Origin: Porphyra umbilicalis | Lineage: Eukaryota; Rhodophyta; Bangiophyceae; Bangiales; Bangiaceae | NCBI GenBank assembly: GCA_002049455.2 | Contig: KV918817.1 | Location: 58,962 to 122,961 of the forward strand | DNA length: 64,000 nt | Direction: 5' to 3' | Shown: positions 2,678 through 27,950 of the stretch, in pieces | How the letters are laid out: each line of letters starts with the position of its first letter | Numbering within the stretch: position 1 is the stretch's first letter | Made by a program: the position numbers and the translations under genes | Notes under the pieces: generated by a model | Database searches by the model: none | Told to the model about the DNA's origin: nothing | The model's input: only the letters and a program-made list of their open reading frames with translations

Positions 2678-2722
2678 GGGGGGCCACCTCCCTAGAATTC
2701 GGTCAGGGGAGTGAAAACTCTC
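1..2722 (+). mobile_element. E1: 3' part of a tRNA-Ile-associated LINE with REL endonuclease
   Basis: This is the downstream third of a non-LTR retrotransposon; its 5' part lies outside the window. It enters inside the reverse transcriptase and runs through the C-terminal endonuclease to a stop at 2,675-2,677. It then shows the two 3' UTR hairpins seen in E3 and E4: CTAGGG...CCCTAG at 2,675-2,696 and GAGT-GAAA-ACTC at 2,709-2,720. Directly after ACTCTC comes the 3' half of tRNA-Ile. The 3' UTR is nearly identical to that of E4, so E1 and E4 belong to the same subfamily. Base composition is far richer in GC than the flanks of the array. Confidence 0.85.
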
Positions 2723-2768
2723 GTGCCAATAAATACCAAAGTCAAGGGTTCGAGCCCCTTCTCCGTTA
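2723..2768 (+). pseudogene. tRNA-Ile(AAU) 3' half between E1 and E2
   Basis: The sequence runs from the anticodon arm (GTGCCAATAA) through variable loop, T-arm (AAGGG-TTCGAGC-CCCTT, the B box) and 3' acceptor strand CTCCGTT plus discriminator A. It matches the 3' half of the tRNA at 11,585-11,676 except for small changes in the anticodon loop and stem. The 5' half is absent, so it cannot make a tRNA. Pol III-type T runs (TTTTT) follow about 12 nt downstream. It marks the target site for E1 and the left edge of E2. Confidence 0.8.
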
Positions 2769-2849
2769 CGGTGGTTCGTTTTTCGCCGTTTTTTGGGGTG
2801 TCGCGGGGGTAGGGGGGGTGTTGGGTCACCCCCCCATCGCTTTTGTTTC

Positions 2850-5800
2850 ATGGCGGGGGGTGGTTTTGGGCCCGATCGGGCCCGGGTCGCGGCTGTAGCG
2901 GGGGTGGTGATGGCGATGGTCGACGCGGCGGCGGGCTACCGCGGAAAGGTAGCCTGCTTTGAATTGTTGGGTTTGGTATTGGCCGAAATTTCGGCCAATG
3001 GGGTGGCCGTGTTAGCGGGGCCGGACGTAGATAGCGCGGTTACGGGCGTAACCGCGCCCGTCTTGCCGCGCCGCTTCGGGTTAGGGGGGGGGGGGCACCT
3101 TCCTCCTCCCCCGACACGGGGGTTCCCGTCGGCGCCGGGGGGGGGACCCCCGCGCCACGACGGGGGGGTGTCCCCCGCGTCTTCCTGCCGCGGGCGGTGT
3201 CTCGGCGGCCGGCGGTGCCGGCGCGGCGGCGGTCGCGGTGCCTTTTGCGGCGGTCCCTGGGCGGGGCGCGGCGCGCGTTTCGGTCCCTGGCGGCTGCCTG
3301 GTGCCCCCCCCCCCCGGTTTTCGACCTGGGGCGGGCGGGGCGGTCCCTTCCCCCCCCTCGGCGGTGTCGGCGGGGGGGGGGAGCTGTTTCCCCCTCTGGG
3401 GCGGGCGGCGGTCGGCCGGCCGGCCGCCGCCCCAACGTTTGTCCCTGTTGGCGTTCTTCCTGGCGGTCGGCGCGGCGGTGCTCTACCTCCCGGCGGCCAA
3501 GGACACGGCGGCGCTCACCCTCGGCAAGGTCAAGATGGTCGCAAGTCGGCGGCCAAGGTCGTGTCGGGGGGGGTGCGGGTCGTGTCGGTGCGCGTGTCGG
3601 CGGGGGGGTGCTGTCGGTGTGGGTGGGCGGGGGGTGCTGGTGTTGCCCCGCGTCGGCGGGGGTGCCCCCCCCGTTGCTGCATCTGCTCCCCCTGCGGGGG
3701 GCATGGACGCTTGTTGTCCGTGGTGGGCGTCGGCGTGGGGGTGGACGTGGGGGTGCGGGGGTGGCTGCCGCTGGCGGGGATGCCGGTGCTGCCGCAGCAC
3801 CGCCGGCTGCCCCGCCTGTGGGTGGTCGCCCTGCCCCCCCTGTCGCCGCCGCGCCGGGGCACCGCGCCCCGCTGACGCCGGCGGAGCGGGCGGCGCGTGC
3901 CGCCGCGTTCTTGACGCGCGCGCGGCCGCGCGCGGGGGCGTTGGTCGCCCTCGAGACAATTTATGTCTCGGGGGTGAACCGGGACGCCCCCGCCCAGCGC
4001 CTGCGCGGGGAGCTGGCGGACCTGACGGGCGTCCACGTGCATAGCATCGTGGACGTCCGTCGGGTCGGCGCGGCCACCGCGGTCACCCTGACGTGACCGG
4101 GGTGGCCGCGTTTACCGCGGCCCTGGGGGTCGGCGCCGCGGCGGGTGTTCTGACCCTGCTGCCGGGCGCCGACCCCTGGTCCCCCGCCTTCTTGGGGCCC
4201 CGGCGGCGCTCGCAGCTGCCGGGCGCCGCCGCGGCGGCGGAGGCGGTCTCGGCTGCCGCCGCCGCCTGACTGCCCAGGTGGCGGAGGTGGCGACGCGGGC
4301 GGCCATGCCCGCCCACCTGCGTGCGTCGCTGGCGGCCCATTATCGGGCCGACCTAGCGGCGCACGCTGGTGCGGGGGGGTGGCCGCCGCGTCGTCGGCGG
4401 CCGCCCGCGGCGTTTCGAGCGCCGCGGCGGCGGTAGCAACCGCTGGCGCCGCCGCCAATTTGGCGGGCGGTGGTGGCGCGGCATCTACTGCCGCGCATCC
4501 CGCCGCCGTTGCGCCCCCACCAGGCCACGTGTCGGGCACGGGGGTGGCGGGGGCCGACGTTTCGCGCCGGGGGCGGCCGCCGCGACGACGGCGGCCACCC
4601 CCAGCGATTTCGCTGCGTTTGCGGCGGCCACCGCGGCCGCCGCCGCAATTTCTGCGGGCGGGGGAGACGCGGCGTTCACCGCCGCGCCCCCCGCTGCCAT
4701 CCCGCCCCCTCCCCGCCACGTGTCGGCCCTGGTGGCGGGGGAGGCCGACGTTTTCGCGCCGGCGGCGGCCGCCACAACGACGGCGGCCACCTCTGGCGTT
4801 GACGCCGCGTCGGAGGCGGCCGCCGCCGCCGCCGCCGCAATTTCCGCGGGTAGGGGCGCCGCGGCGTCCGCCGCCGCGCCCCCATTGCTCCCCCGCCCCC
4901 CCCCGGCCACGTGTCGGCCGTGGCGGCGGGGGGGGCCGACGTTTCGCTGTCGGCGGCGGCCGCCGTGACGACGGCGGCCCCCCCCGGCGTTTCGGCCGCG
5001 CCGGTGGCAACCGCCGTAGCCGCCGCCGCCCCCGCAATTTCGGCGGGTGGGGGGGCCGCGGCGTGCGCCGCCGCGGCGTCCGTTTTCGCCCCACCCTCCC
5101 CCAGGTCTGGGGCTGCGGCGGGGGTGTGCAACGCGGGGGCATCCGCGTCGGCGGCGGGCTCGGCAATGGACACTTCGTCCGACGCCGAGCCCGCTGCCAC
5201 CGTGGACCCTCTCGCTGCCGTGTCGCCGCCTGTGGCCGCCCCGCCTGCTGGGGGGTGATGGGCGCCGTCGCGGCTGCCCCCGGGGGTGACGTGGCGGGGT
5301 CGGCGGCGGCACCAGAAGCCGCCGCCGCACTCCCGGCCGGCGGGGGTCCCACAGTAACCCCCGCCGCGCCTGTCGCTGCCCCTGTTCCCGCCCCCCGCCC
5401 GGTGGAGGCCTCCGGGGTGGCCGACCCGGGTGTGCCCGCGTCGGCGGCGGACTCCGCAATGGACATATCGTCCGATGCGGAGCCCGCCGCCGCCGCGGTC
5501 CCCCCAGAGGTCCACCGCCGCCTGCCCCAACGCAGGCTGGCGGTGGGCCGCCCCGTGTCCCCCGCACCCCCACAGCGGCCCCACGGCCTGCCGCGGCCGC
5601 GCCCTCTCCCGGGGGGGGGTCCCCTAACCCCCCCCCCGCCAAGAAGGCGCGCCGCCGCCGGTCGGGCCGCCGCTTCGCGGCGTCGTCGCCGCCAGCCGCG
5701 CCCGCCGAAGCGGCGTTTGGCCTGGCGGTCGACGACGCCATGGCGGCGGCCACGGCGGCTGCCGCCCCCGTCGTCTCGGCGCCCGCGCCGCCCCCGGAGG

Positions 5801-6413
5801 GGGTTGTGCCCCCCCCCCCACCCTGCACGCGTCCACCCCGTGGCCCACTGCCGGGGTGACGCTGTCGGCGGCGGGGGCCGCCACGCCTGCTGCTGCGGCG
5901 GCCGTGCCTCTCCCCTCTGCGCGGGGTTCCGCGGCGGGTGGGGGGCCTGCCGCCGCCACGCGCTCGCGCCGTGCCACGTCGGCGGGGGGGGCCCGGGGGT
6001 GGCCAAGCGCCGCGCCCGTACCACCCCGGCCGGGCTGGCGCGGGCACTCGTCGCGGCCGGCCACGGCCTGCTGCCTGCTGGCCCCCGGTGCCCCTGTCGG
6101 TGGGGAGGTGGCGCCACCGGCGCGGTGGCCCCCGCTGCCCCCTCCCCTCGGTGCCCGCAACTGTGGGTGGGGGGCTGCCCCCTGCCCTCCCCCCATTCTG
6201 TGGCTGGTGGCCAACCCCCCCATCTACTGGGGGTTGGCCGCCGGCCCGTCCACGGGGGTGGCCGCGGCCGCGGACCCCCCGCGTCTGCCCCCCCGTCGTC
6301 GCCGCACCCGCTGCGCCGCCCGGCGGCCGCGGGCGCCACGCCGGCCGCCCCGCCGCCCTCGCCCACCACCCGGGGGGGACTCGGCTGTTGCCGCCGCGCG
6401 TCGCCATGAATGA
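2850..6413 (+). pseudogene. E2 ORF1 (RRM-like, Ala/Pro-rich)
   Basis: ORF1 starts at the ATG of MAGGGFGPDRARVAAVAGVV, which is present in all three 5' ends. Around 3,950-4,096 is an RRM-like block (IYVSGVNRDAP...LRGELADLTGVHVHSIVDVRRVG). This pattern is typical of nucleic-acid-binding ORF1 proteins of LINEs. A long Ala/Pro/Gly-rich stretch follows, with a basic patch near 5,640-5,690 that could be a nuclear localisation signal. The end is the conserved ARRHE followed by TGA at 6,411-6,413, overlapping the ORF2 start. The frame changes several times along the way, including directly after the RRM-like block. The copy is probably not functional as written. Confidence 0.6.
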
Positions 6414-6741
6414 CGACGCGCGGGGCGGCGGCGCCATGACGCCGCGGGTGGCTCTTCCCCGCGGTGTCGTCGGCGGCCGCGTCGCCCCCCACTCGTCCCG
6501 CTTAGCGCGGGGTGTCGGGGGGGGCTGCGGCGACGCCGGCTGCGCGCCGCCGGCCGTCGCCGGGGGGGGACGCTGGCGCCGGGGGGGTGCTCGGGGTGGC
6601 TGGTGCGGGTTGTCTGCCCTGTGCCGGGGTGTGGGGCTGTTTTGGGCGGGGGGGTCGCGTGCCCGGGTGGGTTCACGCACCTGCACCGCCACCACCTTTG
6701 CGGGAGATTCCCGCAGCGGTGGTGGCGGCGCTCCACCTGGA
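6406..6741 (+). CDS. E2 ORF2, N-terminal stub
   Basis: The ATG at 6,406 opens MNDDARGGGA, the same start as in E3 (MSDDARGGGA) and E4 (MIDDARGGGA). It overlaps the ORF1 stop in the pattern ATGAATGA. The zinc-finger region follows: a Cys pair, then the Thr-His-Leu-His-Arg-His-His-Leu helix near 6,675-6,700, in a shifted frame. The copy ends at the N before any reverse transcriptase. Confidence 0.6.
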
Positions 6742-6742
6742 N
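6742..6742. other. Unknown base, probable assembly join
   Basis: A single N separates element E2, which stops in mid-gene, from unrelated DNA. The left side matches E3 up to about 15,555 and the right side does not, which is the signature of a join or collapsed gap. Distances across this point should not be trusted. Confidence 0.8.
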
Positions 6743-11584: not shown

Positions 11585-11676
11585 GACGGTGTAACTCAGT
11601 TGGTTCGGAATTTCGTCTCAAACAGAGTGTGGTGCTAATAACGCCAAAGTCAAGGGTTCGAGCCCCTTCTCCGTTA
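11585..11676 (+). tRNA. tRNA-Ile(AAU), with enlarged D loop
   Basis: A cloverleaf can be drawn. Acceptor GACGGTG pairs with CTCCGTT (one U-U mismatch), the D stem is ACTC/GAGT, and anticodon arm TGGTG-CTAATAA-CGCCA has anticodon AAU at 11,637-11,639. The variable loop is AAGTC, T-arm is AAGGG-TTCGAGC-CCCTT, and the discriminator is A. T runs at 11,687 and 11,699 could terminate Pol III. No CCA is encoded. The D loop is about 27 nt instead of about 10, through an insertion after AGTTGGTT, so this copy may be inactive. It is the only copy in the window with a full 5' acceptor strand, and E3 starts immediately after it. Confidence 0.7.
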
Positions 11677-11786
11677 CGGTGGTTCGTTTTTCGCCGTTTT
11701 TTGGCTGTGGCGGTTTGTTTTTCGCCGTTTTTCGGGTGTGGGGTGGTTGGGGGGGTGTTGGGTCACCCCCCCACCGCTTTTGTTTC

Positions 11787-14700
11787 ATGGCGGGGGGTGG
11801 TTTTGGGCCCGATCGGGCCCGGGTCGCGGCTGTAGCGGGGGTGGTGATGGCGATGGTCGACGCGGCGGCGGGCTACCGCGGAAAGGTAGCCTGCTTTGAA
11901 TTGTTGGGTTTGGTATTGGCCGAAATTTCGGCCAATGGGGTGGCCGTGTTAGCGGGGCCGGACGTAGATAGCGCGGTTACGGGCGTAACCGCGCCCGTCT
12001 TGCCGGCGCCGCTTCGGGTTAGGGGGGGGGGGCACCTTCCTCCTCCCCCGACACGGGGGTTCCCGTCGGCGCCGGGGGGGGGACCCCCGCGCCACGACAG
12101 GGGGGTGTCCCCCGCGTCTTCCTGCCGAGGGCGGTGTCTCTGCGGCCGGCGGTGCCGGCGCGGCGGCGGTCGCGGTGCCTTTTGCGGCGGTTCCTGGGCG
12201 GGGCGCGGCGCGCGTTTCTGTCCCTGGCGGCTGCCTGGTGCCCCCCCCCCCGGTTTTGGACCTGGGGCGGGCGGGGCGGTCCCTTCCCCCCCCTCGGCGG
12301 TGTCGGCGGGGGGGGGAGCTGTTTCCCCCTCTGGGGCGGGCGGCGGTCGGCCGGCCGGCCGCCGCCCCAACGTTTGCCCCTGCTTCTGCCCTTCCTGGCG
12401 GTCGGCGCGGCGGTGCTCTTCCTTCTGTCGGCCAAGGTAACGACGGTGCACACCCTCGGAGCGGTCAAGACGGACGGCAAGTTGGCGGCCAAGGTCGTGT
12501 CGGGGGGGGTGCGGGTGGTGTCGGTGCGCGTGTTGACGGGGGGGGTGCTGTCGGTGTGGGTGCGGCGGGGGGTGTTGGTGTTGCCCCCGCGTCGGCGGGG
12601 GCTGCTCCCCCCTCTTCTGCTGCTGCTCCCCCTGCAGGGGGGGCATGGACCGTGGTGGTTCGTGGTGGGCGTCGGCGTGGGGGTGGACGTGGGGGTGCGG
12701 GGGTGGCTGCCGCTGGCGGGGTTGCCGGTGCTGCAGCAGCACTGCCGGCTGCCCCGCCTGTGGGTGGTCGCCCTGCCCCCCTGTCGCCGCCGCGCCGGGG
12801 CACCGTGCACCGCTGACGCCGGCGGAGCGGGCGGCGCGGGCCGCCGCTTTCCTGACGCGTGCGCGGCCGCGCGCGGGGGCGTTGGTCGCCCTCGAGACAA
12901 TTTATGTCTCGGGGGTGAACCGGGACGCCCCCGCCCAGCGCCTGCGCGGGGAGCTGGCGGACCTGACGGGCGTCCACGTGCATAGCATCGTGGACGTCCG
13001 TCGGGTCGGCGCGGCCACCGCGGTCACCCTGACGGCGACCGGGGTGGCCGCGTTCACCGCGGCCCTGGGGGTCGGCGCCGCGGCGGGTGTTCTGACCCTG
13101 CTGCCGGGCGCCGACCCCTGGTCCCCCGCGTTTCTGGGGCCGCGGCGGCGCGCCCAGCTGCCGGGCGCCGCCGCGGCGGCGGAGGCGGTCTCGCGTTGCC
13201 GCCGCCGCCTCACCGACCAGGTGGCGGAGGTGGCGACGCGGGCGGCCATGCCCGCCCACCTGCGTGCGTCGCTGGCGGCCCATTATCGGGCCGACCTAGC
13301 GGCGCACGCTGGTGCTGGGGGGGTGGCCGCCGCATCGTCGGCGGCCGCCCGGGGTGTTTCCGGCGCAGCGGCGGCGGCAGCGACAGCCGGCGCCGCCGCC
13401 AATTTGGCGGGCGGGGGTGCTGCGGCGTCAGCCGCCGCGCATCCCGCCGCGTTTCCGCCCCCGCCCGGCCACGTGTCGGCCCCGGGGGCGGCGGCGGCCG
13501 ACGTTTCCACGCCGGGGGCGGCCGTCGCGACGACGACGGCCACCCCCGGCGATTCCGCCATTGTGGCGGCGGCTACCGCCGCCGCAGCCGCAATTTCTGC
13601 GGGTGGGTGCGCCGTTGCGGCCACCGCCGCGGCCCCCGCTTCCTCTCCGTCCCCCCCCGGCCACGTGTCGACCCCGATGGTGGGGGGGGACGACATTGTC
13701 ATGTCGGAGGGGGACGGCGCGACGCCGGCGGCTTCCCCTGGCGTTTCCGCCGCGTCGGTGGCGGTCGCCGCCGCCGACGCCGCAATTTCCGCGGGTGGGG
13801 GTGCGGCGGCGTCCGCCGCCGCGCCCCCCATTGCTCCCCCCCCCCCCCGGCCACGTGTCGGCCCTGGCGGCGGGGGAGGACGCTGCCCCCGCATGTGGGG
13901 CGGCCGCCGCGTCGGCGGCGGCCAACCCCGGCGGTTCCGTGGGGTCGGCGGCGGCATTCGCCGCCGCCGCCGCAAATTCGGCTGGCAGGGGTCACCCGCC
14001 CGCCGCCGTGTCGCCGCCAGCGCCCGCCTTTTTCGCTGGGGGGGGGGCACGCGTGGTCGCGGCCGCCCCCGAGGCCAACTCGCCGGGGTTGGCGGCGGCA
14101 CCTGCCGCCGCCGCAGCACTTTCGGCCGGCGGGGGTCACACAATAACCCCCGCCGCGCCTATTGCTGCTACTGCGCCCCCTCGGCGCCCTGCGGTGGCCC
14201 TTGCGGCGGCCGACACGGGTGTTTCTGCGTCGGCGGTGGACTCCGCAATGGACATATCGTCCGATGCGGAGCCCGCCGCCGCCGCGGTTCCCCCCGGCGC
14301 TCCACCGCCACCTGCCCCCACGCCGGCTGGCGGTGGACCGCCCTGTGTCCCCCCCACCCCCACAGCGGCCCAAAAGCCTGCCGCGGCCGCGCCCTCTCCC
14401 GGGGAGGGGTCTCCCAACCCCCCCCCGCCAAGAAGGCGCGCCGCCGCCGGTCGGGCCGCCGCTCAGCGGCGTCGTCGCCGCCGGCCGCGCCCGCCGAAGC
14501 GGCGTTTGGCCTGGCGGTCGACGACGCCATGGCGGCGGCCACGGCGGCTGCCGCCCCCGTCGTCTCGGCGCCCGCACTGCCCCCGGCGGGGGTTGTGCCC
14601 CCCCCCCCACCCTGCACGCGTCTACCCCGTGGCCCACCGCCGGGATGGCGCTGTCGGCGGCGGGGGCTGCCACGCCCGCTGCCGCGGCGGCCGTGCCTCT

Positions 14701-15217
14701 TCCCTCTGCGCGGTGTTCCGCGGCGGGTGGGGGGCCTGCCGCCGCCGCGCGCTCGCGCCGTGGCGCGTCGGCGGGGGGGGGGCCCGGGGGTGGCCAAGCG
14801 CCGCGCCCGCACCACCCCGGCCGGGCTGGCGCGGGCACTCGTCGCGGCCGGCCACGGCCTGCTGCCTGCCGGCCCCTCGGTGTCCCCGTCGGCGGGGGGG
14901 GTGGCCGCCACCGGTGTGGCAGCCTCCGCTGCCCCCCTGCCCCCTGTGCCCTCAGCTGTCGGGGGGGGGCTGCCCCCCTGCCCTCCCCTCTTACTGTGGC
15001 GGCTGGCCAACCCCTGGCATTTGCCGGGGGGTCGGCCGCCGGCACGTCCACGGGGGTGGCCGCGGCCGCGGAATCCCCCGCGCCTGCCCCCCCGTCGTCG
15101 CCCCCACCCGCTGCTGCCGCCACGGCGCCGGAGGGCGCCGCGCCGGCCGCCCCGCCGCCCTCGCCCACCACACCTGGGGGGGACCCGGCCGTTGCCGCCG
15201 CGCGTCGCCATGAGTGA
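11787..15217 (+). pseudogene. E3 ORF1 (RRM-like nucleic-acid-binding protein)
   Basis: The predicted product starts MAGGGFGPDRARVAAVAGVV. The RRM-like block IYVSGVNRDAPAQRLRGEL...SIVDVRRVGAATAVTLT lies at about 12,893-13,040, followed by a long Ala/Pro-rich region. A basic cluster KKARRRRSGRR lies near 14,427-14,460 and the product ends AAARRHE-stop at 15,217. By analogy with LINE ORF1 proteins it would bind element RNA in a ribonucleoprotein. The frame that carries the RRM-like block is open from 12,645 to 16,613, but the conserved C-terminus is in another frame. At least two frame changes are therefore needed, and all fall in C- or G-rich runs. These may be real decay, sequencing error or slippage. 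Confidence 0.6.
11805..11994 (+). other. Hairpin-rich 5' leader of E3
   Basis: Four inverted repeats follow one another: GGGCCCGATCGGGCCC (11,805-11,820); GGCTACC/GGTAGCC (11,871-11,891, 7-nt loop); a 22-nt perfect palindrome centred on GAAATTTC (11,915-11,936); and GCGCGGTTACG/CGTAACCGCGC with a 2-nt loop (11,971-11,994). The same block occurs in E2 (from about 2,868) and E4 (from about 19,943). It overlaps the first codons of ORF1. R2-type LINEs often carry a self-cleaving or structured 5' RNA; whether this is one cannot be judged by eye. Confidence 0.65.
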
Positions 15218-18200
15218 CGACGCGCGGGGCGGCGGCGCCAATGACGCCGCGGGTGGCTCTTCCCCCGCGGTGGCGTCGGCGGCCGCGTCGCCCCCCACTC
15301 GTCCCGCTTCAGCGCGGAGGTGTCGGGGGGGCTCGGGCGACGCCGGCTGCTGGCGCCGCCGGCCGTCGCCGAGGGGGGGACGCTGGGCCGCGGGGGGGGT
15401 GCTCGGGGTGGCTGGTGCGCGGGTTGTCTGCCCCGTGCCGGGGTGTGGTGCGGTTTTGGCGGGGGGGGTCGCGTGCCCGGGTGGGCTGACGCACCTCCAC
15501 CGCCACCACCTCTTGCGGGAGATTCCCGCAGCGGTGGTGGCGGCGCTTCACCTGGAGGGGTGTCGGTGGTGTTCCCGCCCGTTTGGTGCGGCGGCGGGGA
15601 GACGCGGGCGCTCGGCTCTCTCGTATCACGAGCCGCAGTGCCCGCTGAACCCCCGCCGCCGGGGGGGGCGGGTGACCGCGAGCGGTGCCGCGGGGGGGGG
15701 GGGGGGTGCGCTTTCTGCCGGTGGCGCTTCGGCGCCGTGTGCGGCGGGGGGGCGGCGTCTTTTCGACAACGACCCCCCCGCGTGGGAGGCGGCGCGGGCA
15801 GAGTTTCTGCTCCGCGTCGCCCCCCCCGACGCCGACTGGGCGCCGCTGGTGGCGTCGGGTGCCCGCACTGCGGCCCACGTCCCGGCGGCGCTGGAGGGCG
15901 CGTGGCGCGCCCTGTGCGGCGACGCCCTCGACTGGGCGCGCCGGGTGCCGGAGCAGCGGCTAGCCTGGCTTTGGCTGCTGCTGCTCCCCACCCTCGCCCT
16001 CCACGTGCCGGGACGGCCGGCGGCGGATGGCGCCCGCCGCCGCTGTCGCACGCCGCCCGCGCGGCGGCGCTTTGGACGGCGACTTTGTCGCCGTCCTGCG
16101 GACCGCAACGCGGGGGTGTGGCGTCCGCCTCGGGGGGGCGCGGCTGTGCGGCGGGGGGGGGGGGGTCTGCTGCTGCGGGGGGTGAGGCGGGACGCCCCGC
16201 CTCCCCCGGCCGCCCGTCAGCGGCGCAGCGCCGCGCGCTGCGGCAGGCCGCCGTCGGGCGGCTCGGTGCCGCCGCGCGCTCGCTCGTCGCCGACGCGCCG
16301 GCGCCGCAGACGGGGGAGGTCTGGGAAAAGGCATGTCGCCTTTTCCCACCGGCCACCCCCCATCTGGCGACGCCGGGGCAGGTCGAGGAGGCTTTCGCCC
16401 CCGACCTGCGCGCCGCGGCGGCCTTCGGCGCCCGGCCAATGGCGGCGCGGGCGGCCACCCGCGAGGGGGTGGTGGCCGCCATCCGGGCGGCGCCACGGGG
16501 GAAGGCGCCTGGCCCGTCTGGCCTCCGCGTGGAGCACCTTTGGGCGCTCCATGGGGGGGGCGCGATGCTTTGGTGGGTGTTGTTTTGTTTTTGTCGGGGG
16601 CAGGCGCGGCTGAGCGCCTGCCCCCCGTCGCCGCACGCGCCCTGGCTGGCACGAACCTGCTCTTGCTGAGCAAGCCAGGGGGCGTGGGGGCGGACGGGCT
16701 GCCTGGGCTCCGCCCCATCGGCATGCCCGAGGTTTTGAGAAAGCTGGCCGCCACCGCACTCGCTCACGCGGTGCGGTCGGCGGCGGCGGCGCTTTTTGCG
16801 CCGCTCCAGCTGGGGGTGGGCGTGTCTAGCCCGTGCGAGCGCATCCTCCACGAGGTGCGCTCGCACGTGGCCGCCCACCCCACGCATGCGGTAGTCCAAC
16901 TGGACTACCGCAATGCGTTCAACCTCGTTTCCCGCACTGCCGCCGCCGCGGTGCTGGGCGCCGCCCTCCCCGCGTTGACCCCCTACCTGTGCTGGGTGTA
17001 CGGGGGGGACACGGGGGGGGCCATGCCTAGCGTCTACGGCTGGGCGGCGGCGGGGGACGAGGGGGGGGGGTGTGTGTGCCGGAGGGGGGGGTGCGGCGGG
17101 GCTGCCTCCCGCGTTGGGGGGGGGGGAGTGAGGTGACGGCGGGTGGCGCGCTGCCTGCGCCGCCGCCCCGCCGCCACGTGCTGCGGGCCGAGCGGGGTGC
17201 CCATCAAGGGGACCCCCTCGGCCCCCTCTTGCACGCCGCAGCGCTTTGGCTGGTGCTCCGCCGGCTGTCGGCGGAGCACCCCTCGCTGCTTGTCCGCGCC
17301 TACCACGACGATGTCGTCGTGGTGGGCGCGGCTCCGGCGCTGCGCACGCTCTTGGCGGACGCCGGCCGGCTCGGCGTCGCAATTAACGCCGAGCTGGCGC
17401 CCGCCAAGTGCGTCGCGTGGTCGCCGTCGGGGGGGTCGGCGCCGCCCGGGTGGGCGGCGCCTGGGTGACCGAGGGGGTGCAACAGTTTTTGTTCCCCTCG
17501 GCACCCCCGACTTCGTGTCGGCCGCCGTGCGTGCGCTGGTGGGGGAGCAGCGGCGGCTCACAGAGGCCATCGCCGCTCTCCCCCCCTCTGCGCTCCAGAC
17601 GCAGCTGTTACTGCTGCGTCTGTGTGCGGGCCCGCGAGCCAATTACTGGCTGCGGGCCCTGCCGCTCGAGGCGGGCGCTGAGCTCGCCTCGGCGGTGGAC
17701 CGCGACGCGGGGGATGTGCTCGCGCGTCTTCTGTGTGACGCGCGGGACCCCGCGTCGGTGCGGTCCGCCCTGCTCGCGCGCGCGGCGCTCCCCCCCGCGA
17801 TGGGGGGCTGGGCATAGGCGGGCGGACGCGAGTGGCGGCGCCTGCCGCCCTCGCGTCCTGGACCGACGCCTGCGCGCGGGGGTTTCATACTCCCCCGCGC
17901 TCCGCGACGTCGGCGCATGGCTGCGCGCCAGCTCGGCGGCGTCCGCCGGCTGGGTGGCGGACGCGCCCCCGTCGCCCGCCCCCCCTTCTCGCCGGCCCCG
18001 GTGGGGGGGGCTGCCGCTGCCCGCCCGCCCGACCGCTCCGGCGCGCGCCGCCGCGTGCCGCAGGGGGGGGGGGTGGGGGGTCCCGCTTTTCCGCCCCTGC
18101 GCTGGGGGTGGCCCCCAACCCCCGCGGCCGCCGCCGGCCGAGCGTGGGCTCGTCGGCCGCGGCGACGGGGTGTGCCGGTTTGGCGGCGGCGGGGTTCTCG

Positions 18201-19689
18201 TTTGCGGCGGGGCGCCACTTCTTGGGCGCCCCACCCCCTTCCACCGCCACCCCCGCCCGCACTCTGGTCGCTGGGGGTTCCGCGGCCGCGGCTTCACCGC
18301 CGGCCGCGCGCGGCGCCTCCCCCCCGCCGCCAAGCGTGCCCGGGTGCCGGGGGCGCCACGCGCGCGCTCCCCCGTGGTGTGGCTGGGGCACGACGACGTG
18401 CCCGTCGTGCCCCCGCCCCCACCGGCGTCCCCCCCGTCGCCCGCGCACCCCCCCCCCCCCCCCCCCCCCACCCCCGCCGTGCGCGCGCGCCGACCGCCGA
18501 GGAGGTTGCCCTGCGGGGCGACCTCCTCACGCTGCGTGACGCGGTGGCGTCCCTTTTTGTCGTCCCCCGTACGGGGACGCTGTGGGCGCCGCCGCCGCGC
18601 CCCCCCCGCCCCCCTGGCCCCCCTGTCGGCCTGCCTGGCGGCCGGCCGGACCCGCTGGCTAGCGGGCCGGCCGCCCCCACCCCCCCCCACCCTGCGGCGC
18701 CGCGGCGACCCCCAATCGCCCGGCCACCGGCCTACGCTGCCCGGCGCCGCACGTGCCCCCACATGGGAGGCACTTCTGGGGGAGGAGGCGGGGGGGTTGA
18801 GGTCCCAGCGGGACCTCTCCCTCCCCGTGCACGCCGCGGCCCGCGCGCGCCTTTTCGAGGGGCTGTCCCCCGAGGCGCGCGTGCGGCTCGCGGCGTGCCA
18901 CGGCCACGGCGCGGCCGCGTGGCTGTCGGCTTTGCCGACCCCGGGGGTGGCTGGGACGGCCATCCACGGGGCGGCCATGCGCACCGCCGTGCGCCTGTGG
19001 CTGGGGGCGCCGCCGCGCTCGGCACCGCCGCCGGCGTGGTGCAGCTGCCGGGCGGCGGTGACGCCCGACGGGTGCCACTTTCTGGGCACCTGTGCGGTGC
19101 AGCGCGGCCGCCGCCAGCGGCTGCACAACCACCTTGTGCACCTGCTGGCGGCGGCCCTGCGGCGGACGGGGGCGTGGGGGGATGTGGTGGTGGAGCGGGG
19201 CTTGGACGGGGCGCGCGCGCGGCTGCGGCCGGACCTGCGTGCCACCCGCCTGACCCGGGGGTGCGCACGTGGGGCGACGTGTCGGTGACGTGGCCGTCCA
19301 CCGACACGTTCGCGCGGCGGGTGGAGCGCGAGCCCCTGCGCGCGGTCCTGGCGGAGCTGCGGGAACGGGAAAAGGTACGCAAGTACGCTTCCTCCCTTCC
19401 CGCGGCTCCCCGACCGGATGCGTTCACCCCCCTGGTTTGGGAGGTGTTTGGGCGGATGGGGCCCCTCACTGCCACGTGGCTGAGGGAGGCTTTGGGGACG
19501 CCCGGCGGATCTTTGATCCGCCGGTCGTTCCTGACAGCTGCGTCGGTCGCCCTGTGGCGATCGAACGCCCGGGCTGTCGACGAGGGTTACACGAGTTGTT
19601 TTGGGACGGGTGACCCGCCGGGTGGTTCGGCGGAGGGGCGTTCGCGCCCTGGTGTGAATTCGGTGAATTCGGTGAGTATCTCCGACTGA
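15210..19689 (+). pseudogene. E3 ORF2 (C2H2 - RT - CCHC - REL)
   Basis: The ATG at 15,210 (MSDDARGGGAND) overlaps the ORF1 stop as ATGAGTGA. Visible parts are a C2H2-type finger CPVPGCGAVL...THLHRHH plus a second Cys pair CRWCSRPF and YHEPQC (15,428-15,650), used by R2-type proteins to bind target DNA. Next come RT blocks GKAPGPSGLRVEHLWAL, GLRPIGMPEVLRKLA, QLDYRNAFNLV (16,891-16,923), HQGDPLGPLL (about 17,205) and YHDDVVVVG (about 17,302). The C-terminal part has CSCRA...GCHFLGTC and RLRPDL (about 19,035-19,245), the zinc motif and restriction-like endonuclease. The stop is at 19,687. The open frame is long up to 16,613; later blocks are split over frames, with changes at G/C runs. Confidence 0.75.
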
Positions 19690-19748
19690 GGGGGTGAGAT
19701 CCCCCCGGATTTCGGTCACGGGAGTTGACCTCCCATAGCATAAAACAA

Positions 19749-19819
19749 GTGTAACTCAGTTGGGTTAGAGTGTGGTGCTAATAACGCCAAAGTCAAGGGT
19801 TCGAGCCCCTTCTCCGTTA
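19749..19819 (+). pseudogene. tRNA-Ile(AAU) lacking its first bases, between E3 and E4
   Basis: From GTGTAACTC onward this is a regular tRNA-Ile. The D-arm ACTC-AGTTGGGTTA-GAGT has normal length, the anticodon arm is TGGTG-CTAATAA-CGCCA, the T-arm is AAGGG-TTCGAGC-CCCTT, and the 3' acceptor is CTCCGTT plus A. The first four acceptor bases are replaced by the end of E3 (ACAA), so the acceptor stem cannot form fully. The internal A and B boxes are intact and T runs follow, so Pol III transcription is still conceivable. Confidence 0.8.
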
Positions 19820-19924
19820 CGGTGGTTCGTTTTTCGCCGTTTTTTGGTGTGCGGTTTGTTTTTCGCCGTTTTTGGGTGTGGGGTGGTTGGGGGGGTGTTG
19901 GGTCACCCCCCACGCTTTTGTTTC

Positions 19925-22900
19925 ATGGCGGGGGGTGGTTTTGGGCCCGATCGGGCCCGGGTCGCGGCTGTAGCGGGGGTGGTGATGGCGATGGTCGACG
20001 CGGCGGCGGGCTACCGCGGAAAGGTAGCCTGCTTTGAATTGTTGGGTTTGGTATTGGCCGAAATTTCGGCCAATGGGGTGGCCGTGTTAGCGGGGCCGGA
20101 CGTAGATAGCGCGGTTACGGGCGTAACCGCGCCCGTCTTGCCGGCGCCGCTTGGGTTAGGGGGGGGGGGCACCTTCCTCCTCCCCCGACACGGGGGTTCC
20201 CGTCGGCGCCGGGGGGGGGACCCCCGCGCCACGACGGGGGGTGTCCCCCGCGTCTTCCTGCCGCGGGCGGTGTCTCGGCGGCCGGCGGTGCCGGCGCGGC
20301 GGCGGTCGCGGTGCCTTTTGCGGCGGTTCCTGGGCGGGGCGCGGCGCGCGTTTCTGTCCCTGGCGGCTGCCTGGTGCCCCCCCCCCCGGTTTTGGACCTG
20401 GGGCGGGCGGGGCGGTCCCTTCCCCCCCCTCGGCGGTGTCGGCGGGGGGGGGAGCTGTTTCCCCCTCTGGGGCGGGCGGCGGTCGGCCGGCCGGCCGCCG
20501 CCCCAACTTTTGTTCCTGTTCTGCTCTTCCTGGCGGTCGGCGTGGCGGTGCTCTACCTCCGGCGGCCAAGGAACGGACGTGCACACCCTCGACTACCCAA
20601 GGACGTCAAGACGGCGGCCAAGGTCGTGTCGGGGGGGGTGCGGGTCGTGTCGGTGCGCGTGTTGGCGGGGGGGGTGCTGTCGGTGGGGTGGGTGGGCGGT
20701 GCTGGTGTGCCCCCGCGTCGGCGGGGGTGCTCCCCCCGTTGCTGCATCTGCTCCCCCTGCCGGGGGGGCATGGACCTTGTTGTCCGTGGTGGGCGACGGC
20801 GTGGGGGTGGACGTGGGGGTGCAGGGTGGCTGCCGCTGGCGGGGATGCCGGTGCTGCCGCGCACCGCCGGCTGCCCTGCCTGTGGGCGGTCGCCCTGCCC
20901 CCCCTGTCGCCGCCGCGCCGGGGCATCAGCCCCGCTGTCGCCGGCGGAGCGGGCGGCGCGTGCCGCCGCGTTCTGTCCGCGCGCGGCCGCGCGCGGGGGC
21001 GTTGGTCGCCCTCGAGACAATTATGTCTCGGGGGTGAACCGGGACGCCCCCGCCCAGCGCCTGCGCGGGGAGCTGGCGGACCTGACGGGCGTCCACGTGC
21101 ATAGCATCGTGGACGTCCGTCGGGTCGGCGCGGCCACCGCGGTCACCCTGACGGCGACCGGGGTGGCCGCGTTTGTCGCGGCCCTGGGGGTCGGCGCCGC
21201 GGCGGGTGTTCTGACCCTGCTGCCGGGCGCCGACCCCTGGTCCCCCGCGTTTCTGGGGCCGCGGCGGCGCTCCAGCTGACGGGCGCCGCCGCGGCGGCGG
21301 AGGCGGTCTCGCGTTGCCGCCGCCGCCTGACCGACCAGGTGGCGGAGGTGGCGACGCGGACGGCCATGCCCCCCCTGCGTGCGTCGCTGGCGGCCCATTT
21401 AGGGCCGACCTAGCGGCGCACGCTGGTGCTGGGGGGGTGGCCGCCGCGTCGTCGGCGGCCGCCCGCGGCGGTCTGGCGCCGGGCGGCGGTCGCGGCCGCC
21501 AGCGCTGCCGCCAATTTGGCGGGCGGGGGTGCTGCGGCGGTTGCCGCCGCAATCCCGCCGCCGTTGCGCCGCCGCCCGGCCACGTGTCGGGCCCGGGGGC
21601 GGCGGCGGCCGACGTTTTTGCGCCGGGGGCGGCCGTCGCGACGACGACGGCCACCCCCGGCGATTCTGCCGATTGGTGGCTGCCACCGCGGCCGCCGCCG
21701 CAATTTCGCGGGAGGGGGACGCGGCGTCCACCGCCGCGCCCCCCGCCGTCATCCCCCTCCCCCCGGCCACGTGTCGGCCTGGTGGCGGGGGGGGCGACGT
21801 TTTTGCGTCGGCGGCCGCCGCCGCGTCGACGGCGGCCACCCAAGCCGGTCTGCCGCGTCGGTGGCGGCCGCCGCAGCCGTCGCCGCAATTTCCGCGGGTG
21901 AGGGCGCCGCGGCGTCCACCGCCGCGCCCCCCGCTGCTTCCCCGCCCCTCCCGGGTCACGAGTCGACCCCGGTGGGGGCGGGGGACGACGTTGTCATGGC
22001 GGCGGCGGCCGCCGCGACGCCGGTGGCCACCCCGGCTCTTCGGCCGCGTCGGTGGCCGCCGCCGCCGCTGCCGCCGCAATTTCCGCTGGTGGGGTGGGCG
22101 CGGCGCCCCACCGCGCCGTCCGCTCCCGTCCTGCCCCCCCCCGGTCTGGGGCTGCGGCCTGGGCGCGCGACCGGGGGCGTCCGCGTCGGCGGTGGGCTCG
22201 GCGATGGACTTGTCGTCCGACGCCGTTCCCGCCGCCGGCGCGCCGCCCGCCGCCGCCGCGTCGCCAACGGCGACCGCGGCGTCAGCCGCCGAGCCCCCCT
22301 GCCCGCTGGCTCTCCCGTGGCTGTGCCGCCGCCCCCGCTGCTGCCGCCCCGCCCCTGGGCGGGCCGCCGGCCCGCCCCCGCCCAAAAAGGCCCGCCGCCG
22401 CCGGTCTGGCCGGCGGTCGGGGGCGTCGCCGACGTCTGCCGCGCCCGCCGAAGAGGCGTTCGGCATGGCCGTCGACGACGCCCTCGCCGCGGCCAACGCG
22501 GCGGCGGGCCAAGGCGCATCAGCGTCCGCCCCGCCCCCTGTGGCGGCTGTCGCCCTTCCCTCCGCCTCGCTCGGGTCCTCCGCGCCGCCGACCGCCGCCG
22601 CTGCGGTGGCGGCGGCGGCGAGCGCCACGTCGGCCGCTGCCGGGGTGCTGCCGCCGCCGACGGCGGGGACGCCGCGCGCGGTGGCGGCGCTGCCGCCGCC
22701 ACGCGAGCGCGGCGTGGACTGTCGGCGGGGGGTGGTCCGGGTGTCGCAAAGCGACGCACCCGAACCACCCCGGCCGGGTTGGCGCGCGCGCTTGCCGCCG
22801 CGGCGGCAGCTTGCTGCGTGGCGCCGTCTCGCTGCCGCCGCCGGCTGGGCGGGGTGCGGCCGCCGCGGCTGCCGCCCCCTCCCCTCCTGTGCCCGCTGCG

Positions 22901-23174
22901 GCGGATGGGGCAGCTGCCCCCTCCTCACCCCCACCTGTTGTGGCGTGCGGCCCCCCCCCTGGACCTGATGGGGGGACGGTCGCCGCTTCGCCGGCGGGGC
23001 TGCCCGAGGGGGCCCAGCCTGTCGGGCTGCCCCGCCGTCGCCGCCGCCGCCGGCGGCCGTCGACGCTGCTGTCGCGGCCGCCACGGCGGCTGCGCCGCCC
23101 CCTCGCCCACTACCCCCGGTCCCTCGACACCGGGGGGGGTGGCTGATGTTGCCGCCGCGCGTCGTCATGATTGA
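19925..23174 (+). pseudogene. E4 ORF1 (RRM-like)
   Basis: It shows the same start MAGGGFGPDRARV and the same RRM-like block (YVSGVNRDAPAQRLRGEL..., about 21,022-21,160). The Ala/Pro-rich body is long, with a basic patch KKARRRRSGRRSG near 22,385-22,420, and the end is AAARRHD-stop at 23,174. The Ala/Pro-rich body is much less like E3 than the leader is, as expected for a fast-changing linker. Several frame changes occur, again at G/C runs. Confidence 0.6.
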
Positions 23175-26100
23175 CGACGCGCGGGGCGGCGGCGCCGCGG
23201 GTGGGGCGGGGGGTTCGCACCCCACCTCGCCTGCGGCGGCCGCGTTGCCACCCGCCACGCCGCCTGTTGCTGGCGGCGAGCGGGTCGGCGGGGGGGTGCC
23301 GCGGTTGGCACCTTGGCGGGTGCGGGTCGGGGGGGGGAGGCGGCACGGGCACACCCGGCACCTCCGACGAGGTGGTCGTGGTGTGCCCGTGTGTGGCCTG
23401 TCAGGTGGGGCTGCCGGGGGGGGTGGGGTCCACGATGGGCCTCACCCACCTCAGCAAGCACCACCTGCTCCGGGACGTGCCGGCGGCGACGGTGGCTGAG
23501 CACCGCCTCGCCGGCTGCCGGTGGTGCTGCCGGCCGTTTCGGTCGGTGCGGGGGAGGACCGGGCGGTCCTCCCTGACCGCCCACGAGGCGCAGTGCCCGC
23601 GCAACCCGCGCAAGCGGTTCGCGCGGGAGGCGGCCGCGGTGGCGGCGCGGCGGGGGACGGCGGCGGCGTCGGCGGGGGGGAGTCGACGGGGGGGTGGGGC
23701 GGGAGGCGTCTGCGGGGGGGCGGCGCGGGGGGGGGCGGCGGCCGCCGGTGCTTCTCCCCTGGTGGGGCTGCGGCGGTGTCGGCGGCGGCGGGGGGTGGCC
23801 GTGGGGGGGGGGGGGGAGGGGCCAACCGCCTCTTCCACTCCAACCCCGCGGAGTGGATGCGGCGGCGGGACGACTTCCTCCGCCGCGTCGCCCCCGACGA
23901 GGCCAGCTGGCGGCCGCTGGTGGCGTCCGGCGCGCGGACGTCGCCGCACGTCGCGTCGGCGCTGGAGGGGGCGTGGCGCGCCGTCATGGCGGACGCCCTC
24001 TGGTGGGTGGGGAGGGAGCCTGGGCAGCGGCTTGCCACCGTTTGGCTGCTGCTGCTCCCCTCCCTCGCCCTCCACGTGCCGGCGCGGCCGGCGACCGACG
24101 GCGTGCCGCCGCCGCTCTCGCACGCCGCGAGGGCGGCGGCGCTCCTCGACGGCGACTTCTTGGCCGCCCTCGCCGACCGCAACGCGGGCGTGTGGCGGCC
24201 GGGGGTCGCCCCCGCGCGGCGTGCGGGGGGCTTGCGCACCCCGCGCGTCGACGCGGTGCCGGGGCGCACGGCGCCGACGCGGCTGGCGCCGGCGCAGCGC
24301 CGGGCGCTGCGGCAGGCGGCGGCGGGGCGGCTGAGCGCCGCCGCCCGCTCGCTGCTGTCTGAGCCACCCGCCCCCCAAACAGGGGCGGTGTGGCTCAAGG
24401 CCCGCGGCCTGTTCCCCCGCGCCACCCCCGCCCTCGCGACGGAGGGGTCGGTCGCCGCCGCCTTCCCAGACGCCCTGCGGGAGGCGGCGGCGTTTGGCGA
24501 GCGCCACAAGGCGCCGCCAAAGGTGACGCGGGAGGGGGTGGCCGCCGCCATCCGGGGGGCGCCCCGCGGCAAGGCGCCCGGCCCCTCCGGCCTCCGCGTC
24601 GAGCACCTTTGGGCGCTTGACGCGGGGGGGCGGGACGCGTTGGTGGGGGTGGTGCTGCTGTTGGCGGGGCCGGGGTCGGCGCGCTTCCCCGCGTGCGCCG
24701 CGGCCGCGCACGCGGGGACCGACCTCCTCCTGCTGGCCAAGCCGGGGGGGGTGGGGGGGGACGGGCTGCCTGGGCTTCGGCCCATTGGCATGCCCGAAAC
24801 CCTCCGCAAGCTGGCGGCTCGGCGCTGGCGGCGGCGGTGCGGTCGGCGGCGGCGGCGCTGCTTGCGCCGCTGCAGCTGGGGGTGGGGGTGTCAAGCCCGT
24901 GCGAGCGCATCCTCCATGAGGTGCGCGCGCACGTGGCCGCCCACCCCCATCACGCGGTAGTCCAGTTGGACTACCGCAACGCCTTCAACCTCGTGGCGCG
25001 GGCGGCCGCCGCCGCCGTGCTCGGCGCCGCCCTCCCCGTGCTGCTCCCATACATCACGTCGGTGTATGGGGGTGACACGGGGGGGGCGGCGCCGTGCGTC
25101 TACGGCTGGGCGGCCGACGACGCCGACGGGGGGGGGGGGCGGACGCGGCGGCGGACTCGGTGGCGGGCGGCGGACCTGTCGGGGGGGGGGGGATGCCCCG
25201 GCGGGGGACGCGGCGGCTGTCGGGGGTTCTGTCGGGGGGGGGGGGGAGGCGGCGGCGGGGGGCGACGGCGGGCTGCCGGCGCCGCCGCCCCTCCGCCGCT
25301 TTCTGCGCGCCGAGCGGGGCGCCCACCAGGGCGACCCGCTCGGCCCCCTCCTCCACGCGGCGGCGCTGTGGTTGGTGCTCCGCCGCCTGGCGGCGGACAA
25401 CCCGGCGCTGGTGGTGCGCGCCTTCCACGACGACGTCGTCGTGGTTGGCGCGCCCGCCGACATGGCCACCCTGCTGGCGGACGCGGCGGGGCTGGGCTCG
25501 GCGATTGACGCCGAGCTCGCCCCCGCCAAGTGCGTCGGCTGGTGCCCGTCGGGCGCGCCGCCGCCGCCCGGGTGGGCGGCGCCGTGGGTGACCGAGGGGG
25601 TGACGCAGTTCAGCGTCCCCCTCGGGTCCCCCGCGTTCGTCAGCGCGGGGGTGGAGGAGCGCGTGGCGGAGCAGCGCAAGCTGACCACCGCCATCGCCGC
25701 GCTCCCCCCCTCCGCGCTGCAGACGCAGCTGCTGCTGCTGCGCCTGTGCGCCGGCCCCCGGGCCAACTACTGGCTCCGGGGGCTGCCGCTCGAGGCGGGC
25801 GCGCGGCTGGCGGCGGCGGTGGACGCGGACGCGGCGGGGGCGCTGCGGCGCCTCCTGACCGACGCCCGCGACGCCCCCGGCGTCGTCGCGGAGCTGCTGG
25901 CCCGGGCGGCGCTGCCGCCGGCGATGGGGGGGCTGGGGATTGGGGGGCGGACGCGGGTGGTGGCGCCGGCCGCCCTCGCGTCGTGGACGGACGCGTTGCG
26001 GGCGGGGGTGGCGTACTCCCCCGCCCTTCGCGCGCTCGGCGAGTGGCTGCGCGCGCGGTCGGCGGGGGAGGGCGGGGGGCGGGGGGCTCACCCCCCCCTG

Positions 26101-27859
26101 CGTCATTGGCTGCTTTGCCGGTGACGTCGGGGGGGGTGGGGGCTGCCGCCCTCGCGCCCTCCCTCGCCCCCGACTGTCGGCCGCCGCGGCCCCTGCTTCC
26201 GCCGCTGCCCGGGGGGTGCGCGGGGTGGCCGCGCCGCGGGCCCGCCCGCATTGGGGGTGTCGCCCACCCCCCGCGCACGACGTCGGCCGCGCGCCGCCGC
26301 CCCTGGCCCCTCCACGGGGTGCGCCGCGCTGGCCGCCGCGGGCTTTTCGTTTGCGGGGGGGCGTCATTTCCTTGACGCCCCCCGCCCGCCGACGGGGATT
26401 CCCCGTGCCGGCGCCGCCGCACCTGCGGCCGCGGCTGGCGCCCAGCGCCCATCGGCCGGCCGCCCCCCCTCACCGCACCGTCCGGTTGCTGCCCCCCCGG
26501 CCTCGGCACCATCCGGGGCGCCTGTGGCGGGGGGACCGAGCGGGGTGGCACCGGTGGTGTGGCTGGGGCACGACGACATTCCTGTCGTCGCTGCCCCAGC
26601 CTCCCTGCCCCCCCCCCGCCTGCGCACCCCCCCCCCCCCTCCCCCCCCCCCCCAACCTGCGCGGGCGCCGACGCCCGAGGAGGTCGCCCTGCGGGGGGAC
26701 CTCCTCACCCTCCGCGACGCGGTGGCTTTCGCCTTTGTGGCCCCGGCCACGGGGGTGCTGTGGGTGCCCCCGTCGCGCCTCCGCCGCCCCGCCCCGCGTC
26801 CTGCCGGCCCCGGCGGCGGTCCGGCGGACGTTCTGGCGGGCGGGTCGCCCGCCCCCCCCCCCCCCCACCCCGCGGCGCCGCGGCGACTTCTTCTCGCCCG
26901 GCCACCGGCCAACACTGCCCGGCGCCGCCGGTCGCCCCCTCGTGGGGCGACCTGTTGGGGGGGGGGGACAGGGTGCTGCGCACCCAGCGGGACCTGTCGG
27001 TCCCGGCGCACGCCGCGGCCCGCGCGCGGCTTTATGAGGACCTTCCTCTAGGCCAGCGCGCGGGGTACGCGGCGTGCCACGGGCACGGCGCTTCCGCCTG
27101 GCTGGCGGCGCTGCCCACCCCCGGGGTGACGGGCACCGCCATCCCTGGCGCGGCCATGCGCGCGGCGGCGCGCACGTGGCTGGGCGCGCCGGCCTACGCC
27201 GGCCTGGCGGACCGCGTCTGCACTTGCGGGGCGGCCCTGGACGCCGCAGGTACCCACTTTTATGGGACCTGCGACGTCCAGCGCGGCCGCCACATGCGGC
27301 TCCACAACCACGTGGTGCTGCTGTTGGCGGCCGCGCTGCGGCGGGCTGGGGGGTGGGGGGAGGTGGAGGTGGAACGGGGGTTGGACGGGGCCCGGGACAG
27401 GCTGCGGCCGGACCTGGTCGCCACCCGGGCGGTGACGGGGGTGCGGACGTGGGGGGACGTGTCGTTTGCGTCCCCCTTCGCCCGCCCTTTCCCGACCGGG
27501 TGGCGGGGGAGCCCCTGCGGGCTGTGGCGGCGGAGGCGCGGGAGGCGTGGAAGGTGGGGAAGTACACCCCCGCCCTCCCCGCCTCCACGCCACCGCACGC
27601 GTTCACCCCACTGGTGTGGGAGGTCTGCGGGCGGGTTGGGCCCAAGACTGCCGCTTTTCTGCGGGATGCTTTGGGTTCCCCGGGCGGCTCCACCGCCCGG
27701 CAGTCGTTCCTAACGGCTGTGTCGGTGGCGGTCTGGCGCTCTAACGCGCGGGCCGCCGCTGACGGGATCAACGCGAGTTTTGTGACGGGTGACCCGCCCG
27801 GGTTGGGGGCGGAGGGGCTTTCGGGCCCTAGTGGGAATTCTGTGACGGTCGGTGACTAG
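23167..27859 (+). pseudogene. E4 ORF2 (C2H2 - RT - CCHC - REL), best-preserved copy
   Basis: The ATG at 23,167 (MIDDARGGGA) overlaps the ORF1 stop as ATGATTGA. The order of parts is: Cys/His finger CPCVACQ...THLSKHHLLRDV with CRWCCRPF and AHEAQC (23,386-23,605), then an N-terminal RT region open from 23,521 to 24,960. RT blocks are GKAPGPSGLRVEHLWAL, GLRPIGMPETLRKLA, QLDYRNAFNLV (about 24,963), HQGDPLGPLL (about 25,325) and FHDDVVVVG (about 25,424). The conserved GHDDIPVV block is near 26,570, and the C-terminal CTCGAAL...GTHFYGTC and RLRPDLVATR lie at 27,218-27,430. The product would nick tRNA-Ile DNA and prime reverse transcription there. About four frame changes separate the blocks. Confidence 0.75.
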
Positions 27860-27904
27860 GGGGGGCCACCTCCCTAGAATTCGGTCAGGGGAGTGAAAAC
27901 TCTC

Positions 27905-27950
27905 GTGCTAATAAACACCAAAGTCAAGGGTTCGAGCCCCTTCTCCGTTA
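27905..27950 (+). pseudogene. tRNA-Ile(AAU) 3' half between E4 and E5
   Basis: GTGCTAATAA, then the variable loop, T-arm with B box and CTCCGTT plus A, as at 2,723-2,768. The junction with the element end (ACTCTC|GTGC) is at the same tRNA position as for E1. The 5' half is absent. T runs follow at 27,960-27,976. Confidence 0.8.

What the first reader, a model, noticed from the sequence alone, without database searches (positions are those of the whole stretch)
2723..27950. R2-type LINEs whose every junction is a tRNA-Ile(AAU) gene
Four boundaries between or beside elements (2,723-2,768; 11,585-11,676; 19,749-19,819; 27,905-27,950) hold tRNA-Ile(AAU) sequence in the same orientation. Each is followed directly by the same leader. 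The encoded protein has the zinc finger - RT - CCHC - REL order of site-specific LINEs such as R2, NeSL and CRE. Established targets of that group include 28S/18S rDNA, spliced-leader, U2 and 5S genes. Known tRNA-seeking LINEs (Dictyostelium TRE) are a different, APE-type clade that inserts beside the gene. A REL-type element inside tRNA-Ile would be a new target class as far as I know.
Basis: partly seen in the sequence, partly recalled or inferred. Interest (0 to 1): 0.92.

Follow-up and report, generated by a model that had tools for sequence, protein, structure and literature searches.

The report
LINE arrays seeded at tRNA genes
In the genome of what is probably a red seaweed, R2-like jumping genes stand in head-to-tail rows right behind tRNA genes for isoleucine, aspartate and glycine; each new copy likely inserts by duplicating most of the tRNA gene, which would leave the host's own gene whole and ready as the next landing site.

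Summary
In detail: all four boundaries carry tRNA-Ile(AAU) sequence in one orientation, followed by an element leader. One (11,585-11,676) is a whole native gene with a D-loop intron; three are 3' remnants. The protein is of the R2 type: the RT profile's best solved matches are R2 proteins, and the predicted C-terminal fold is the R2 endonuclease. Sister families form similar arrays at tRNA-Asp(GUC) and tRNA-Gly(CCC). Where the head of such an array is assembled (3 Asp, 2 Gly arrays), it is a whole tRNA gene; the junctions found behind it hold remnants that begin inside the D-arm. Asp remnants carry the ectopic intron of their own array's whole gene (7 of 7). This favours target-primed insertion with a long target-site duplication that spares the gene, over duplication of one locus or an element-borne tRNA. 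New, as far as my searches show: Ile/Asp/Gly targets, the probable red-algal host, intron-barcoded, apparently upstream-growing arrays. Unexplained: the native gene at 11,585 has an intron that the remnant behind e2 lacks. Clade placement (R2, NeSL, HERO) was not tested.

The parts
1..2722 (+). 3' half of a type-B Ile-LINE (e0): FHDD box, CCHC and restriction-like endonuclease (RLE) motifs
   Evidence: 70-78% identical to e2/e3 over ~2.7 kb; motifs at 269-295, 2043-2096, 2224-2286
2723..2768 (+). tRNA-Ile remnant, type-B junction (anticodon arm to 3' end); the first ~13 nt are probably the element's own 3' end
   Evidence: sequence (L017)
2769..6741 (+). 5' part of an Ile-LINE (e1), broken after 6741
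   Evidence: 89% and 83% identity to e2 up to window 15556, none beyond
11585..11676 (+). whole tRNA-Ile(AAU) gene with a D-loop intron and an AT-rich 5' flank; head of the e2-e3 array
   Evidence: Rfam tRNA 47.8 bits; sequence
11606..11623 (+). 18-nt ectopic D-loop intron; the genes on C122 and C169 have an insert at about the same place
11677..19752 (+). e2, full-length type-A Ile-LINE (frames broken)
15429..15641 (+). two CCHH/CCHC-like zinc-finger motifs upstream of the RT in e2 (homologous pair at 23384-23596 in e3)
   Evidence: pattern match
16499..17327 (+). reverse transcriptase of e2: GKAPGPSG, QLDYRNAFN, HQGDPLGPLL and YHDD boxes
   Evidence: homologous frame in L064: RVT_1 E 9e-4, below Pfam's cut-off; profile best to R2 structures
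19040..19386 (+). CCHC knuckle and RLE of e2 (RPD...GDVSV...KVRKY)
   Evidence: R2-like fold of the homologous L064 piece
19753..19819 (+). tRNA-Ile remnant from about nt 5, without intron (type-A junction)
19820..27904 (+). e3, full-length Ile-LINE with a type-B 3' end (frames broken)
27905..27949 (+). tRNA-Ile remnant, type-B junction
   Evidence: (L016)
27950..28050 (+). diverged leader-like stretch (T-runs, then a G/C hairpin by eye) with no similarity to an element body behind it; probably the oldest insertion or the native trailer

Best explanation
These are R2-like LINE retrotransposons whose copies lie head-to-tail behind tRNA genes, and they likely insert by target-primed reverse transcription in the D-arm (anticodon arm for one subtype) with a long target-site duplication that leaves the host tRNA gene whole. 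Shown: the protein parts (RT, CCHC, R2-like predicted endonuclease fold); arrays at tRNA-Ile, -Asp and -Gly; a whole tRNA gene with a non-element 5' flank at the head of three Asp arrays, two Gly arrays and e2; remnants that start at fixed D-arm or anticodon-arm points and, in the Asp family, carry their own array's intron. Inferred: the endonuclease nicks the tRNA gene beside the A box; the element's 3' end (AAACTAG in the Asp and Gly families) pairs with a TAG in the D-arm to prime cDNA; the second cut falls behind the tRNA 3' end, so the stretch between is duplicated. The upstream copy is the complete gene, so it serves again as target and arrays grow upstream, with the oldest, most decayed unit downstream. 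D-arm-type remnants keep the A- and B-box regions (by eye), so they could act as a Pol III promoter in front of the next element (untested).
Against: The remnant behind e2 (19,753) has no intron although the gene before e2 has one, and none of the 5 type-A remnants has one. C271 holds remnants of two intron types in one contig. No single insertion with host sequence on both sides was found, so the duplication is read from arrays, not from an empty/filled pair. The Ile type-A units on C57 are 99% alike and could have been multiplied by unequal crossing-over. The upstream C57 array begins with a 5'-truncated element without a tRNA gene. 5 of the 18 sister ends run into other repeats, and none of 15 more distant relatives showed a tRNA. 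Frames of e2 and e3 are broken. The polarity test has only 3 arrays.
Confidence: 0.8

Rival explanations
1. Tandem duplication: one element beside one tRNA-Ile gene was multiplied by unequal crossing-over, and the tRNA pieces were copied along.
For: Type-A junctions on C57 at 21418, 29699, 37942 and 46216 repeat every ~8.2-8.3 kb and the 3' regions are 99% identical to e2's; could explain why all type-A remnants lack the intron.
Against: Type-A and type-B 3' ends with different tRNA breakpoints are mixed in one contig; e2 has a whole gene with its own flank; Asp and Gly families repeat the arrangement at separate genes with separate flanks and, for Asp, array-specific introns.
Confidence: 0.1
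2. The tRNA 3' part belongs to the element: its RNA carries a tRNA-derived, spliced 5' promoter (SINE-like) from site to site.
For: Ile type-A remnants lack introns although genes on C122, C169 and C57:70585 have them; remnants keep the A- and B-box regions.
Against: In the Asp family remnants keep introns, and these follow the array (7 of 7); whole genes with host flank stand at the array heads.
Confidence: 0.07
3. TRE-like targeting: the elements are drawn to Pol III machinery beside tRNA genes, not to tRNA sequence.
For: The 5' ends lie just behind tRNA genes; one relative lies directly before a 5S rRNA gene.
Against: 3' junctions fall at fixed positions inside the tRNA, and the nuclease is of the R2 type rather than APE.
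Confidence: 0.03

Closest known systems
NeSL-1_TV (tRNA-Pro), LIN15_SM (tRNA-Arg), LIN25_SM (tRNA-Glu) RLE LINEs, Kojima & Jurka 2015 (PMC4640811; passages read, S6 Fig not seen)
   Same: LINEs of the restriction-like-endonuclease group specific for a tRNA gene
   Different: Other hosts (planarian; Trichomonas by recall) and other tRNAs; their duplication length, array growth and intron state are not in the passages I read; clade relation untested
Utopia, U2 snRNA-gene LINEs (same paper)
   Same: RLE LINE in a small-RNA gene; tandem arrays of elements and U2 genes in Phytophthora (supplement caption); 20-bp duplications in reptiles
   Different: Target is U2; here tRNA genes, and the inferred duplicated stretch, roughly 70-120 bp, spares a whole gene
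R2 (28S rDNA)
   Same: RT profile and RLE fold best match R2 structures
   Different: Not in 28S; long inferred target-site duplication; arrays
Dictyostelium TRE5/TRE3 and NLTR (review PMC5911963, passages read)
   Same: Non-LTR elements at tRNA genes
   Different: L1-type elements; TRE3 and TRE5 carry an APE endonuclease and insert beside the gene (TRE3 40-150 bp downstream)
Dada DNA transposons (PMC8869645, passages read)
   Same: Insert inside tRNA and snRNA genes
   Different: DNA transposons with 6-7 bp duplications

Membership tests
Restriction-like-endonuclease LINE group (R2, R4, NeSL, CRE, HERO) | Non-LTR reverse transcriptase closest to this group | tested here: met
   Profile best hits are R2 proteins, well above LINE-1; only solved structures were compared
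Restriction-like-endonuclease LINE group (R2, R4, NeSL, CRE, HERO) | C-terminal CCHC knuckle plus PD-(D/E)xK-type endonuclease | tested here: met
Restriction-like-endonuclease LINE group (R2, R4, NeSL, CRE, HERO) | N-terminal zinc fingers | tested here: met
   Two C/H motifs upstream of the RT in e2 and e3, by pattern only
Restriction-like-endonuclease LINE group (R2, R4, NeSL, CRE, HERO) | One open reading frame | tested here: inconclusive
   Frames of e2 and e3 are broken; RT matches lie in open frames of up to 2318 aa elsewhere
R2 clade proper | Insertion in 28S rRNA genes at the R2 site | tested here: not met
   10 of 10 listed complete Ile-family 3' ends at tRNA-Ile
R2 clade proper | RT branches with R2 | not tested
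   No labelled NeSL, CRE, R4 or HERO reference sequences at hand
NeSL clade (incl. Utopia, LIN) | RT branches with NeSL-1/Utopia/LIN | not tested
   Same reason
Dictyostelium TRE | APE endonuclease | tested here: inconclusive
   No APE family found in the pieces scanned, but frames are broken; the endonuclease found is RLE
Sequence-specific LINE | 3' junction at a fixed target position | tested here: met
   Asp after TAG at nt 8-10, Gly after TAG at nt 13-15, Ile-A about nt 4/5, Ile-B about nt 40, numbered by hand

The most novel reading that the evidence does not exclude
A radiation of tRNA-gene LINEs has turned single tRNA genes into self-renewing landing pads: every insertion rebuilds the whole gene upstream and leaves a stamped copy downstream, so each array is a time-ordered record of its tRNA gene, introns included, and the ectopic T-arm introns of the host's tRNA genes act as shields against insertion (genes with a T-arm intron: 3 of 6 unoccupied, 0 of 11 occupied; Fisher p 0.029, post hoc).
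Probability: 0.3. Interest if true: 0.8.

Novelty: new variant of a known kind. Interest (0 to 1): 0.62.

Why it matters
It would show how a site-specific LINE can live in low-copy tRNA genes without killing its host: a long duplication keeps the gene intact and renews the target. The intron barcodes would make insertion order readable from sequence, and one genome holds related endonucleases aimed at three tRNAs (plus, in one copy, a 5S rRNA gene), a natural series for learning how R2-type proteins choose sites, which matters for R2-based gene insertion.

Tried and rejected

Rows dropped before counts: C250 (broken inside the 3' region) from the Ile count; L081 (C457, broken before the 3' end) gives no target but is counted in the 18; remnants on C271, C628 and C457 are left out of the 7-of-7 test because no whole gene was found on their contigs. 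The 18 stretches are my pick from the upper part's list, not all of it.
Full report
Observation. The four tRNA-Ile(AAU) stretches are present at the stated places and in one orientation. The anticodon-arm pattern occurs 9 times in the 83.8-Mb genome (up to 1 mismatch) and its backward control never. They differ in kind: 11,585-11,676 is a complete gene with an 18-nt D-loop insert and AT-rich sequence upstream; 19,753 begins at about nt 5; 2,723 and 27,905 begin in the anticodon arm. The window holds e0 (3' half), e1 (5' part to 6,741), e2 and e3 (both full length), and a leader-like scrap at 27,950-28,050. In 500-base windows the elements are mostly 76-84% G+C, against mostly 50-72% in the rest of the window.

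Host. In the lists the RT and RLE homologues at 50% identity or more that bear an organism name are all from Pyropia vietnamensis or P. yezoensis, so the host is probably a bangiophyte red alga; the genome itself is unnamed. Its tRNA-Ile genes on C122 and C169 carry two inserts each, in the D- and T-arms. Ectopic introns in red-algal tRNA genes are known to me by recall (Cyanidioschyzon); a review (PMC3978253) appeared only in a search listing.

Genome-wide picture. RT and RLE searches of the genome list 117 and 120 matching pieces (lower bounds), many in arrays; the tRNA places of an array lie about 8 kb apart where nothing seems to interrupt (5 to 16 kb overall) on C57, C394, C24, C271, C36, C210, C596 and C481. 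Ile family: every listed copy whose 3' end is complete runs into tRNA-Ile, 10 of 10 (five type A, five type B), on C57, C15 and C415. Sisters: I took 18 3'-end stretches from the RLE hits. Seven run into tRNA-Asp(GUC), five into tRNA-Gly(CCC), five into other sequence, mostly repeats of unknown kind, and one is broken before its end. ARAGORN calls all five Gly remnants; Rfam's tRNA model finds four of the seven Asp remnants. Of 15 more distant relatives read, none showed a tRNA to ARAGORN, Rfam or the eye; one stands directly before a 5S rRNA gene, and seven share one unidentified repeated flank.

Whole genes and remnants. Pattern searches with up to 2 mismatches gave 22 tRNA-Asp and 9 tRNA-Gly(CCC) places, backward controls 0. 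Of the Asp places, six are whole genes followed at once by a leader (C394, C24, C36, C179, C491, C438) and three are whole and unoccupied (C137, C188, C334); the other 13 are remnants. Gly: three whole genes with a leader (C210, C481, C17; all three called by ARAGORN), one unoccupied (C147), five remnants. Asp remnants begin after a TAG at nt 8-10 and Gly remnants after the TAG at nt 13-15 (numbered by hand); in both families the element ends in AAACTAG, with small variants in single copies.

Why a target-site duplication. The Asp genes have D-loop introns that differ from gene to gene. The seven remnants on contigs that also hold the whole gene are each nearest to that gene's intron among eight native introns (0-3 edits, next best 3-6). 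By the first 35 nt of trailer the own gene is nearest in five and tied in two. Similarity within arrays stays above that between arrays to about 60 nt past the tRNA (distance 0.11 within, 0.24 between for nt 0-12; 0.11 and 0.11 for nt 60-90). So the duplicated stretch seems to run from the D-arm through the tRNA 3' end and some tens of bases beyond, and the upstream copy is the complete gene. An element-borne tRNA or duplication of a single locus does not predict this.

Array growth. In the three arrays with a whole gene and two or more remnants with introns, intron differences do not fall with distance from the gene (C394 0,0,1; C24 0,3; C36 1,1). Where a downstream end could be seen it is a scrap (C57:86866; C24:261298, a ~560-nt leader piece; the lone leader on C507); other arrays run off their contigs or into nested elements. 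This fits insertion always into the whole upstream gene. It is a small sample and the mechanism is inferred.

What does not fit. e2's native gene has a D-loop intron but the remnant behind e2 has none, and C271 mixes two intron types. Gene conversion of the whole gene between insertions, or recombination with the near-identical C57 type-A block, could explain both; neither was tested. The C57 upstream array starts with a 5'-truncated element and no tRNA gene.

T-arm introns. The three genes seen with a T-arm intron (C122, C169, C137) are all unoccupied: 3 of 6 unoccupied against 0 of 11 occupied genes (Fisher p 0.029; C507, with only a leader scrap, is counted as occupied). This is a post hoc lead only.

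Known or new. RLE LINEs in tRNA-Pro, tRNA-Arg and tRNA-Glu genes are in print (PMC4640811, passages), as are tandem Utopia/U2 arrays in Phytophthora (supplement caption, same paper). I found no report of tRNA-Ile, -Asp or -Gly targets or of red-algal RLE LINEs in the listings of searches; I read passages of four papers only, and the library lacks most subscription journals, so this is weak. I judge it a new variant of a known kind: a new set of targets in a new lineage, with a gene-sparing long duplication that the introns make unusually easy to see.

Noticed in passing
window 59323-62227 (-): Ty3/gypsy chromovirus pieces: RNase H, integrase and chromodomain.
   Followed up: no
window 44750-46003 (+): DDE_Tnp_4 transposase frame, PIF/Harbinger-like by recall.
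   Followed up: no
window 37450-43260: Dense cluster of direct and inverted repeats (arms up to 622 nt, 94% complementary); nature unknown.
   Followed up: no
window 4373-5029, 13317-13973, 21551-22099: About 191-nt tandem repeats inside the 5' coding part of the elements, in differing copy numbers.
   Followed up: no
window 28326-30443 (+): 705-aa open frame without a Pfam match right behind the leader scrap.
   Followed up: partly
L019 (C169), L020 (C122), L084 (C137): tRNA genes with ectopic introns: D- and T-arm in the two Ile genes, T-arm in one Asp gene; all three are unoccupied.
   Followed up: partly
L047 (C241): A relative whose 3' end directly precedes a 5S rRNA gene; one copy only.
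   Followed up: partly
L048-L054 (C504, C288, C283, C55, C438): Relatives whose 3' ends share one ~90-nt repeated flank, sometimes followed by the next element; target unidentified.
   Followed up: partly
L078, L079, L080, L082, L083: Relatives with a related 3' end (CACCGCACTAG) that run into satellite-like or other sequence.
   Followed up: no
L071, L072 (C271): LTR-retrotransposon-like sequence (gypsy integrase-like, copia gag-like, by eye) behind element leaders.
   Followed up: no
L089, L090, L094, L098: The last ~15 bases before four occupied tRNA-Asp genes look alike (GACAT..AAA, by eye); not tested.
   Followed up: no
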